Below, in pieces: positions 3,834 to 7,245 of a DNA stretch of 54,608 nucleotides. Origin of the DNA: Lutibacter sp. (GTDB lineage: Bacteria; Bacteroidota; Bacteroidia; Flavobacteriales; Flavobacteriaceae); contig NZ_JAUYUD010000118.1 in NCBI RefSeq assembly GCF_030692605.1, positions 1 through 54,608 on the forward strand, given 5' to 3'. Made by a program: the position numbers and the translations under genes. The notes below the pieces were generated by a model. The model was given only the letters and a program-made list of their open reading frames with translations, had not been told where the DNA came from and made no database searches. The stretch's first letter is position 1. Each line of letters begins with the position of its first letter.

Positions 3834-3865
3834 TAACCTCTGGCGAGAATCGTGAATGTTGGTTA
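3834..3865 (+). promoter_or_regulatory. structured leader of rplS, possible L19 autoregulatory site
   Basis: TAACC (3834-3838) pairs with GGTTA (3861-3865). Inside it GCGA (3843-3846) and TCGT (3850-3853) form a smaller stem closed by a GAA loop. The element lies between the rplS promoter and its ATG. Ribosomal protein genes are often controlled by binding of their own product to the leader. A role of that kind here is inference from position and shape. Confidence 0.4.
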
Positions 3866-3891: not shown

Positions 3892-4245
3892 ATGGAAAGT
3901 TTAGTAAAATTTATTCAAGACGAATTTGTAAATAAAAATGAATTACCTGAATTTCAAGCAGGAGATACCATTACTGTTTACTATGAAATTAAAGAAGGTG
4001 ATAAAAAACGTACACAATTTTTTAAAGGTACTGTAATTCAAAGAAGAGGATCTGGTGCTTCAGAAACATTTACCATTAGAAAAATGTCAGGTACTGTTGG
4101 TGTGGAACGTATTTTTCCATTAAACTTACCAGCAATTCAAAAAATTGAAGTTAACAAACATGGTAGAGTTCGTAGAGCACGTATTTTCTACTTTAGAGGT
4201 TTAACTGGTAAAAAAGCTAGAATTCAAGAGAAAAGACGTAAATAA
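3892..4245 (+). CDS. rplS: 50S ribosomal protein L19 (bL19)
   Basis: L19 sits at the interface of the two ribosomal subunits. The 117-residue product reads MESLVKFIQDEF at the N-terminus, followed by the family motifs PEFQAGDTITVYY, FKGTVIQRRGSG, FTIRKMSGTVGVERIFPL and the basic C-terminal tail. An in-frame ATG at 3856 would add twelve residues that do not belong to the family and would fall inside the leader hairpin, so I chose 3892. The gene ends in a strong terminator 19 bases downstream and appears to be transcribed on its own or with trmD. Confidence 0.96.
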   Translation: MESLVKFIQDEFVNKNELPEFQAGDTITVYYEIKEGDKKRTQFFKGTVIQRRGSGASETFTIRKMSGTVGVERIFPLNLPAIQKIEVNKHGRVRRARIFYFRGLTGKKARIQEKRRK

Positions 4246-4263
4246 ACGTTTTTCAAAATAGTT

Positions 4264-4294
4264 AAAAAACCGATTGAAAACAATCGGTTTTTTT
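4264..4294 (+). terminator. rho-independent terminator after rplS
   Basis: AACCGATTG (4268-4276) and CAATCGGTT (4281-4289) form a perfect stem around the loop AAAA, with an A-run before it and a run of T after it. Confidence 0.9.
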
Positions 4295-4399
4295 ATGAAC
4301 AATTGTTAATAACCTCGGTTGATATTGTGTTGATATTAAAATAGTTTAAAATTTGTAATTCTAATATTTTCGTATTTAATTTACAATGTGAATTTAACT

Positions 4400-4807
4400 A
4401 AGAGGGTAATGTTAAGTTTAAAATCTGATTTTATACTTCAACCCGTCCGAGATTAATTTATAATATGTTCTTGAACATCGTTTTTAAAACTTGACTGTGA
4501 AAGTAGTGTAGCCCGGTATTTAGCATACGTTAAGGAAACATAGTTTTAAAGACATTTTAAAATAAAATTTTAAATGTATGTAATTTGAAAAAATTGCAAA
4601 AAAAATTTAGATTTTATTTTAAAGAAACATCAATTAATAAATGTTGATTTTTGTAAGAGAATCAACCTGCATCAATTAAAATAAAATTTAGATAGGGGCT
4701 TGTAAAAGGCATACTTAAAAATAAAAATTTAATTGAAGGTTTATTAAAAAAATGTTTCAGCAAAATGCCATAGTATTGAGTAATCAATAGTGTGGCTTTT
4801 GTTTTTT
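4400..4807 (+). ncRNA. candidate structured non-coding RNA between rplS and icd
   Basis: No open reading frame of useful length lies in the 774 bases from 4246 to 5019. Hairpin 1: GGGT (4404-4407) with ACCC (4441-4444), AAGT with ACTT, and TAAAATC with GATTTTA. Hairpin 2: ATGTTC (4465-4470) with GAACAT (4473-4478). Helix 3 has 12 pairs, 4480-4491 with 4542-4553, with one G-U, and encloses 50 bases including GTAT/ATAC. Further down, CATCAATTAA occurs twice (4628 and 4670) and could pair with TTAATTGA at 4729-4736. The region ends in a clear terminator at 4762-4807. A separate icd promoter lies downstream, so this terminator does not belong to icd. Rfam families such as 6S-Flavo, tmRNA and RNase P should be tested; I do not recognise the conserved motifs of tmRNA or RNase P. 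The exact 5' end is uncertain: near 4330-4360 there are only promoter-like, not exact, boxes. Confidence 0.5.
4762..4807 (+). terminator. rho-independent terminator of the candidate ncRNA
   Basis: GCCATA (4767-4772) pairs with TGTGGC (4791-4796), then after one mismatch TATTGA (4774-4779) pairs with TCAATA (4784-4789) around a GTAA loop. An A-run precedes it and TTTTGTTTTTT follows. No protein gene lies upstream within 500 bases, which implies a non-coding transcript. Confidence 0.75.
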
Positions 4808-4926
4808 AAATAAGTTAGTTTTCTTAATTATTATTTCTTCATTTTTATATCCCTTTTTTTATTTAATTTTAAATTATACCACCTTATTTATAACGATTTC
4901 GGAATACGTATTTTACAAAATTATAG

Positions 4927-4934
4927 TACCTTTG
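4927..4934 (+). promoter_or_regulatory. -7 promoter box of icd
   Basis: TACCTTTG matches TAnnTTTG exactly and is followed by GCAC. The predicted untranslated leader of icd is about 80 bases and A-rich, with no obvious structure. The stretch 4808-4926 upstream holds only AT-rich sequence. Confidence 0.6.
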
Positions 4935-5013
4935 CACAACATTAATTTCAACCCTAAATAGTGATCTAAAATTTTCAATAATTCTAAATTTTACTAGTTA
5001 TAAAAACATATAA

Positions 5014-7245
<2,232 letters not shown>

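What the first reader, a model, noticed from the sequence alone, without database searches (positions are those of the whole stretch)
4296..4807. A structured, probably non-coding transcript between rplS and icd
A 774-base gap without ORFs contains a 12-pair helix (4480-4491 with 4542-4553), two further well-formed hairpins and a clear rho-independent terminator at 4762-4807. rplS already has its own terminator at 4264 and icd its own promoter at 4927, so the second terminator has no protein gene to serve. A transcript of about 400-450 bases is implied. I do not recognise tmRNA, RNase P or SRP RNA motifs. It may be the flavobacterial 6S RNA or something new.
Basis: partly seen in the sequence, partly recalled or inferred. 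Interest (0 to 1): 0.75.

Follow-up and report, generated by a model that had tools for sequence, protein, structure and literature searches.

The report
New structured RNA of flavobacteria
Between two ordinary genes sits a gene for a folded RNA, several hundred letters long, that codes for no protein, seems to be kept in most genera of one large bacterial family, matches no catalogued RNA family, and has an unknown job.

Summary
The gap (4246-5019) of this Lutibacter-like genome holds a stand-alone non-coding RNA gene, about 4389-4806, + strand.

A 92-nt upstream element (a GTTNATAA array at fixed spacing before a promoter) was found in 150 of 199 Flavobacteriaceae genomes, once in 145. The 3' hairpin is conserved in sequence, unlike the rplS terminator (0.75 versus 0.35). 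Rfam 15 has no convincing match in the gap. 6S-Flavo, RNase P and tmRNA lie elsewhere. An icd leader or the chromosomal origin is unlikely.

The interior diverges fast: a Lutibacter core model finds one clear locus among 65 outside. Function is unproven. Best guess: a protein-binding RNA whose promoter is controlled through DnaA-type boxes. Such boxes are enriched in a candidate origin (rpiB-rnr) of other genera, but not before rnr in Lutibacter.

The parts
4293..4336 (+). Upstream box array: TTATGAAC 4293-4300, GTTAATAA 4305-4312, GTTGATAT 4318-4325, GTTGATAT 4329-4336 (inverted repeat plus two direct repeats; DnaA-box-like, by inference)
   Evidence: positions; alignment A3 of 44 sequences; the inverted-repeat pattern matches at 0 mismatches only here in the window; model R2 finds it in 150 of 199 family genomes
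4353..4384 (+). Predicted sigmaA-type promoter: -33 TTG 4353-4355, 21-nt spacer, -7 box TAATTTAC 4377-4384 (several other genera have TATATTTG/TATATTTA)
   Evidence: Sequence and alignment A3; the TAnnTTTG consensus as stated in PMC9723704 (passages read). The window's copy matches the consensus imperfectly
4389..4806 (+). The structured non-coding RNA (5' end inferred from the promoter, 3' end from the terminator)
   Evidence: Covariation; folding z; no conserved ORF
4465..4478 (+). P1 hairpin ATGTT-CTTG-AACAT; contains GTTCTT, also seen in most other loci
   Evidence: helix 1, nearly invariant; GTTCTT exact in 50 of 61 loci, 61 of 61 with one mismatch allowed, which is weak for six letters
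4480..4553 (+).
   Evidence: helix 2: 4 of 13 pairs change on both sides, 97.6% of cells paired
4555..4624 (+). P3, 4555-4565 with 4614-4624, with inner stems P3a (4569-4575/4605-4611) and P3b (4580-4584/4593-4597)
   Evidence: helices 5-7: 4 of 11, 3 of 6 and 4 of 5 pairs change on both sides
4634..4747 (+). P4, long-range helix 4634-4640 with 4741-4747, enclosing a variable 3' domain
   Evidence: Added by hand from complementarity; helix 8: 3 of 8 pairs change on both sides, 96.7% of cells paired
4693..4714 (+). P4b hairpin of the genus (mostly not formed in the window's own copy)
   Evidence: Added by hand; helix 9: 7 of 8 pairs change on both sides but only 78.9% of cells paired; window pairs listed
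4759..4806 (+). P5, 3' hairpin and intrinsic terminator, core GCCAT...(G/A)TGGC then a T-rich tail
   Evidence: helix 10; family-wide alignment A2; sequence conserved 0.75 versus 0.35 for the rplS terminator
4264..4293 (+). rplS terminator hairpin (flanking feature, ends the upstream gene)
4927..4934 (+). icd -7 promoter box TACCTTTG (flanking feature)

Best explanation
A stand-alone gene for a structured non-coding RNA (about 418 nt here, 253-577 nt predicted in 60 loci), transcribed from its own promoter and ended by its own terminator. I propose that it acts in trans as a protein-binding RNA (a ribonucleoprotein scaffold or a decoy), with its promoter controlled by a protein that binds the four GTTNATAA-type boxes just upstream, most likely DnaA, so that its level follows the replication or growth state. 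Shown by sequence: an RNA structure under selection, a fixed promoter architecture, usually one copy per genome, wide conservation. Inferred: transcription itself, the TSS, DnaA as the binder (my probability about 0.35), protein binding rather than base pairing as the mode of action (about 0.5). The confidence below is for the identity as a stand-alone structured RNA gene, not for the mechanism.
For: Covariation in two separate groups: 35 Lutibacter sequences, 30 of 82 pairs changed on both sides, 0/500 shuffles as high, slid controls 10-15; 24 sequences of Algibacter/Winogradskyella-type genera, 43 of 89, 0/500, slid controls 9-14, and 40 of 103 and 52 of 126 when folded on one half and tested on the other (200 shuffles: 16.4 and 26.1). 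+ strand folding z below -2 in 26 of 26 tested sequences chosen from 60, mean -5.2. Upstream element in 150 of 199 family genomes, once in 145 and twice in 5. Of 37 R2 loci read, 34 sit beside rplS and 37 carry a GCCAT...ATGGC terminator, one (L233) with a different inner stem. The 3' hairpin is conserved in sequence beyond what a terminator needs. For DnaA: in about 855 kb scanned, clusters of three or more boxes occur only at the locus itself (window and G036); two weak secondary R2 hits fall in the rpiB-rnr gap of G071 and the accA-dnaB gap of G359; rnr lies within roughly 0.1-0.55 Mb of the coarse GC-skew minimum; five rpiB-rnr type gaps hold 22 boxes against 3.5 +/- 1.9 in shuffles (overlapping matches of one palindrome counted twice in both). 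For protein binding: structure is kept while sequence is not, and the only sequence conserved in most loci is the 3' hairpin and GTTCTT.
Against: No transcript data. The Lutibacter core model R3 finds only 1 of 65 outside loci clearly (L034, E 6e-11), so family-wide homology of the interior is not shown; it rests on synteny, promoter, terminator and overall architecture. The terminator sequence is not universal: the two copies of G081 do not fit the pattern. In Lutibacter the gap before rnr is short (104-113 bases) with zero or one box in four of four genomes, so the boxes-at-origin argument does not hold in the window's own genus. The two secondary R2 hits are weak (E 2e-5 and 6e-5), those of G092 and G125 were not listed or read, and the window's last two boxes are GTTGATAT, not GTTNATAA. 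The APC-corrected covariation ranking puts only 2 of the top 20 column pairs of A1, and 5 of the top 20 of the second group, in the predicted structure (background 0.0007); most top pairs look like phylogenetic noise.
Confidence: 0.9

Rival explanations
1. It is a base-pairing regulatory RNA whose seed lies in the conserved 3' hairpin (GCCAUAUC, which could pair around AUG-GC start regions) or in the GUUCUU loop; the rest is a scaffold.
For: The elements most conserved in sequence across the loci are GCCAT...ATGGC and GTTCTT; the 3' hairpin is far more conserved than the rplS terminator.
Against: The conserved arms are paired to each other in a strong terminator stem; the transcript is long and highly structured; GTTCTT is lacking in the RNA of G117 (read). 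No target search was made.
Confidence: 0.3
2. The locus is primarily a DNA element: a DnaA-titrating or replication-control site (of the datA/DARS kind, recalled), or the chromosomal origin, and the RNA is secondary.
For: Box array with nearly fixed spacing, usually one copy per genome; similar boxes in the candidate origin of other genera.
Against: Origin: in G036 the skew minimum is near 2.8 Mb but the locus is at 1.19 Mb; in G192 the minimum is near 3.7-4.2 Mb and the locus at 1.80 Mb; G012, G117 and G206 profiles were weak. Any DNA-only reading fails to explain the covarying RNA structure.
Confidence: 0.1
3. It is a long 5' leader or attenuator of icd.
For: It lies upstream of icd in most loci, and stays with icd in the three loci where rplS is not adjacent (L175, L230, L231).
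Against: A terminator (P5) and a separate icd promoter box lie between. The RNA is also present where icd is replaced by an unrelated isozyme (G081) or where neither icd type was detected within the locus (L183, L233). The four g130 genomes checked lack it and keep an isocitrate dehydrogenase gene.
Confidence: 0.04
4. A decayed or small protein gene.
For: Some copies have + strand ATG ORFs up to 57 codons.
Against: Longest + strand ORF per copy ranges from 1 to 57 codons; no Pfam match above cut-off for 10 stop-to-stop frames of the window; compensatory changes fit RNA, not codons.
Confidence: 0.02

Closest known systems
Large ornate bacterial RNAs (OLE, ROOL, GOLLD; abstract starts in search listing)
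   Same: Stand-alone, several hundred nucleotides, multi-helix structure, unknown or protein-scaffold function
   Different: No match to any Rfam model here; OLE is reported from Gram-positive bacteria with well conserved sequence, while this interior is poorly conserved; no phage link seen (two exact patterns built from other genera's sequences, 0 matches in viral contigs)
Flavobacterium psychrophilum Rfp sRNAs, notably Rfp18 (PMC9723704; passages, outline and section 20 read, supplements not available)
   Same: Independent transcripts of Flavobacteriaceae, structured, some conserved beyond a species
   Different: Reported median length 176 bp; the genus I take to be Flavobacterium (g130, unnamed) has no R2 match and lacks the locus in 4 of 4 checked. 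The sequence of Rfp18 was not seen, so no direct comparison
6S-Flavo (RF01685)
   Same: Structured non-coding RNA of Bacteroidetes
   Different: Present on another contig of the same genome; the locus does not match it
CcnA of Caulobacter (PMC8959179; start of abstract in the search listing only)
   Same: A non-coding RNA tied to cell-cycle regulators, the kind of role I suggest here
   Different: Another organism; no homology tested; a link here is only inferred from box motifs

Membership tests
6S-Flavo (RF01685) | Covariance-model match at the locus | tested here: not met
   No match at gathering or at E<=10 in 4230-5030; the genome's copy is on contig C40, 105.6 bits
RNase P class A (RF00010) | Covariance-model match at the locus | tested here: not met
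   Genome's copy on C112, 214.7 bits; none here
tmRNA (RF00023) | Model match / ARAGORN call at the locus | tested here: not met
   Genome's best copy on C96, 157.6 bits; ARAGORN finds none in the window
Any Rfam 15 family | Match to one of 4227 models | tested here: not met
   Window gathering scan: only the L19 leader. Gap at E<=10: 11 matches, all far below their gathering scores (lowest E 0.02), ten on or beside the rplS terminator (4230-4361) and one at 4880-4937; none on the RNA body. 20 relatives at gathering and 8 at E<=0.05: only L19 leaders and one Flavo-1 upstream of rplS
Rfp18-type sRNA | Sequence homology to F. psychrophilum Rfp18 | not testable with these tools
   Sequence is in supplements not available; g130 genomes lack the locus in 4 of 4 checked
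cis-regulatory icd leader | Same transcript as icd | tested here: not met
   By sequence only: terminator and separate promoter box in between; association with icd is not strict. Not tested by RNA
Chromosomal origin (oriC) | Location at the GC-skew minimum | tested here: not met
   G036 and G192 clearly not; G167 also far from its minimum; G012, G117 and G206 profiles too weak to judge alone; the window's own genome (126 contigs) was not profiled
DnaA-regulated promoter | Array of the organism's DnaA boxes | tested here: inconclusive
   Boxes resemble those enriched in a candidate origin of five other loci (22 vs 3.5) but not before rnr in Lutibacter; binding not tested
boxA-antiterminated transcript | The genome's own rRNA-leader boxA in the RNA | tested here: inconclusive
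   G117 rRNA leaders carry GTTCATAAACATATTG and GTTCATTGACATATTG (my reading); most RNAs carry GTTCTT, and G117's own RNA has none. Only one genome was compared

The most novel reading that the evidence does not exclude
A new class of structured RNA of the Flavobacteriaceae whose synthesis is set by DnaA through a dedicated box array, so that a non-coding RNA-protein particle reports or controls the replication cycle in this family; its promoter and 3' hairpin are nearly fixed while the folded interior evolves very fast.
Probability: 0.25. Interest if true: 0.87.

Novelty: new variant of a known kind. Interest (0 to 1): 0.72.

Why it matters
Structured non-coding RNAs of several hundred nucleotides that are kept across a whole bacterial family are few (from general knowledge). 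The promoter element of this one is present in three quarters of the 199 Flavobacteriaceae genomes sampled, and the RNA has no match among Rfam 15 families. If DnaA does control it, it would open cell-cycle RNA regulation in Bacteroidota to direct test. The combination of a rigid promoter and 3' hairpin with a fast-changing folded interior is also an unusual test case for RNA evolution.

Tried and rejected
Rejected: 6S-Flavo, RNase P and tmRNA (found elsewhere in the genome). Chromosomal origin. boxA antitermination as an established feature: the RNA motif differs from the rRNA boxA of G117, and G117's RNA lacks it. A phage origin: two exact patterns gave 0 matches in viral contigs, but they were built from other genera's sequences and would not match the window's own copy; phage and plasmid records were not searched. 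Protein remnants: no Pfam match above cut-off in 10 frames of the window. A simple terminator scan did not see P5.

Led nowhere: the 16S model found no rRNA in G012 and G036, for reasons unknown (masking suspected, yet a 16S start was readable in G117). The Lutibacter core model R3 reached only one outside locus clearly. Paper searches showed, in their listings and abstract starts, no description of this locus; most subscription papers and all supplements were not available, and a 2017 list of 224 candidate RNAs (recalled) was not held, so 'not in print' holds only for these searches.

Rows dropped: L022 (contig ends 90 nt after rplS) was dropped from the genus alignment, leaving 35. The terminator pattern was found in 61 of the 80 named loci; of the other 19, L022, L046 and L051 end too soon to test, L025 has the RNA but one substitution in the pattern, and the remaining 15 lack it by this pattern. 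A2 used 40 of 64 loci, A3 the window plus 43 of 59 (L029, L030, L053, L091 and L092 left out before that, as unalignable upstream), A4 24 of 35, the second-group alignment 24 of 25 listed (L030 dropped). One search removed near-identical rows (31 of 35 kept). Named loci that duplicate a genus genome were counted once in the genus alignment. R3 was run on 65 loci chosen mostly from those with the RNA. One search ended in an error after printing the skew tables, because a stretch reads N.

Full report
WHAT WAS CLAIMED AND WHETHER IT IS THERE. rplS ends at 4245 and icd begins at 5020. The 774-base gap has no + strand ORF of 40 aa or more. The + strand of 4380-4812 folds 4.8 standard deviations better than shuffles, the - strand 1.8.

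THE STRUCTURE IS UNDER SELECTION. DNA similarity over a good part of the gap was found in 35 of 37 genomes of the genus, own included (G004 has none, and G027 only short matches that I do not count); relatives are about 67-73% identical. In 35 sequences RNAalifold gives 66 pairs, 20 with changes on both sides. With two further helices added by hand (P4, P4b) there are 82 pairs, of which 30 change on both sides. Shuffles give 12.0 +/- 2.3 (0/500 as high), and partners slid by 1-3 columns give 10-15. P4b is weak: 78.9% of cells paired, and mostly not formed in the window itself. In a second set of 24 sequences (Algibacter, Winogradskyella and related genera, about 500 nt) 43 of 89 pairs change on both sides (shuffles 20.0 +/- 2.7). 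When the structure is computed on half of the sequences and tested on the other half it still shows 40 of 103 and 52 of 126 (shuffles 16.4 and 26.1). Against this, an unsupervised ranking of all column pairs is dominated by what looks like phylogenetic noise: 2 of the top 20 pairs of the genus set and 5 of the top 20 of the second set are structural, although chance would give about 0.01. In 26 of 26 sequences chosen from 60 across the family the + strand folding z is below -2 (40 shuffles each; mean -5.2; - strand mean -3.0, so part of the signal is shared by both strands).

THE GENE'S BORDERS. Upstream, at a nearly fixed distance, lies a conserved 92-nt DNA element: an inverted repeat TTATNAAC-N4-GTTAATAA, then GTTNATAA, then GTTGATA, then the -33 and -7 promoter boxes. 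In the window these are 4293-4336, 4353-4355 and 4377-4384. The flavobacterial consensus TAnnTTTG is as given in PMC9723704 (passages); the window's TAATTTAC is an imperfect copy, while several other genera have TATATTTG or TATATTTA. The predicted start is near 4389. Downstream, the hairpin GCCAT...ATGGC with a T-rich tail is shared by the aligned loci. Its last 14 bases before the T run are 75% identical between loci, those of the neighbouring rplS terminator 35% (60 loci), so it seems conserved for more than termination; the two copies of G081 do not fit the pattern. Predicted RNA lengths run from 253 to 577 nt, median 482 (60 loci including the window). The longest + strand ATG ORF per copy varies from 1 to 57 codons, and ten stop-to-stop frames of the window have no Pfam match above a cut-off.

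DISTRIBUTION. A sequence-only model of the upstream element (R2) matches 150 of 199 Flavobacteriaceae genomes of at least 90% completeness, in 149 of 198 genera: once in 145 and twice in five (G071, G081, G092, G125, G161). Of 37 such loci read, 34 lie beside rplS, and 37 carry a GCCAT...ATGGC terminator, one (L233) with a different inner stem; three (L175, L230, L231) have icd but no rplS within the locus. G081 and G161 carry a second element 550-610 bases further on; the second copies look shortened. Of 12 R2-negative genomes examined (not a random choice; four are g130), 3 (L238, L240, L242) still carry an RNA with the terminator, so 150 is a lower bound. In a sample of 196 genomes of the order, 13 matches are in the family and two are marginal ones outside it (E 5e-4 and 8e-4). 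The genus listed most often there (g130, which I take to be Flavobacterium; unnamed) has no match, with 17 of its genomes named among the negatives and 161 negatives not listed; in 4 of 4 checked an isocitrate dehydrogenase gene (either type) follows rplS within about 300 bases. Several of the 20 listed R2-negative family genomes are small (1.6-2.3 Mb). The own genome has one match with each of R2 and R3.

LIMIT OF HOMOLOGY. A covariance model of the Lutibacter core (R3) searched over 65 loci outside the genus alignment gives one clear match (L034, E 6e-11), one faint match at the right place (L251, E 0.54) and two chance-level matches on the wrong strand. The interior is therefore not shown to be homologous across the family. 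The claim of one gene family rests on synteny, the upstream element, the terminator and a similar lay-out (by eye, a long-range helix just after the GTTCTT region in many genera). This is the main uncertainty about calling it one RNA class.

WHAT IT IS NOT. Rfam 15 has no match on the RNA body at gathering threshold or at E<=10; 11 matches far below threshold (lowest E 0.02) lie on or beside the rplS terminator or at 4880-4937. There is none in the gap of 20 relatives at gathering or of 8 loci at E<=0.05. The genome's RNase P, 6S-Flavo and tmRNA lie on other contigs. It is not the origin in the genomes with a clear profile: the GC-skew minimum of G036 is near 2.8 Mb with the locus at 1.19 Mb, and that of G192 near 3.7-4.2 Mb with the locus at 1.80 Mb. 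An icd leader is made unlikely by the terminator, by the separate icd promoter box, and by copies beside an unrelated isocitrate dehydrogenase (G081) or with neither type detected in the locus (L183, L233).

HOW IT MAY WORK. Shown: a conserved promoter region with a box array, a structured RNA, a conserved 3' hairpin. Inferred: a trans-acting RNA. Because structure is kept while sequence drifts, and only the 3' hairpin and GTTCTT are shared by most loci, I think protein binding a little more likely than base pairing. The boxes resemble DnaA boxes (consensus TTATNCACA recalled). Two weak secondary R2 matches fall in the rpiB-rnr gap of G071 and in the accA-dnaB gap of G359 (gene names from my reading of the ORFs); the second matches of G081 and G161 are the tandem copies, and those of G092 and G125 were not listed or read. 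rnr lies within roughly 0.1-0.55 Mb of the coarse skew minimum in the sampled genomes, and five rpiB-rnr type gaps hold 22 such boxes against 3.5 +/- 1.9 in shuffles. In four Lutibacter genomes, however, the gap before rnr is only 104-113 bases with zero or one box. DnaA control is thus a lead, not a result. A boxA (antitermination) role for the GTTCTT motif was considered and left open: the rRNA leaders of G117 carry GTTCATAAACATATTG and GTTCATTGACATATTG, and G117's own RNA has no GTTCTT.

WHAT IS KNOWN. The transcriptome paper on F. psychrophilum (PMC9723704; outline, passages and section 20 read) reports 85 new independent transcripts; its main text does not contain 'rplS' or 'icd', and its tables could not be opened. 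The 104-motif paper (PMC2864571; passages) lists 6S-flavo and Flavo-1 among its Bacteroidetes motifs and an 'icd' motif for Pseudomonas. The listings of searches showed no description of this RNA.

VERDICT. A real, widely kept, so far uncatalogued structured RNA gene; identity confidence about 0.9, mechanism open.

Noticed in passing
window 3834-3861: L19-Flavobacteria ribosomal protein leader (RF03130) upstream of rplS, 44.5 bits; also found upstream of rplS in 20 of 20 relatives scanned.
   Followed up: yes
L254 1328-2046; L257-L260: The gap before rnr (about 610-910 bases, rpiB on the other side in four of five) of several non-Lutibacter genomes lies near the coarse GC-skew minimum where profiled and is rich in GTTNATAA-type boxes, two with TGTGGATAA: a candidate chromosomal origin.
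   Followed up: partly
G036, G192, G167, G206, G117, G012: The RNA locus lies at 0.35-0.45 of the chromosome length from rnr in six of six genomes computed, i.e. in the half opposite the candidate origin (two are Lutibacter, where rnr is not shown to be at the origin).
   Followed up: partly
G167, G200, G127, G072, G229, G189 (single-contig genomes), G012: In these single-contig genomes the RNA locus is only about 8-14 kb from an end of the record; dnaA was confirmed at the record start in G012, G018 and G036 only.
   Followed up: no
L250 2263-3492 and L247: The gene downstream of the rplS region is the unrelated dimeric-type NADP isocitrate dehydrogenase (my reading of the ORF) in some genomes, in place of the monomeric 741-aa type of the window: non-orthologous replacement at the same site.
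   Followed up: no
L251 (G161), L250 (G081): Tandem second copies of the RNA locus with their own box array; the second copy in G161 looks much shortened but keeps a GTGTTTAGCA motif shared with the Lutibacter core (GTATTTAGCAT).
   Followed up: partly
L028 2178-2321: A Flavo-1 RNA (RF01705) match upstream of rplS in an Algibacter genome.
   Followed up: no
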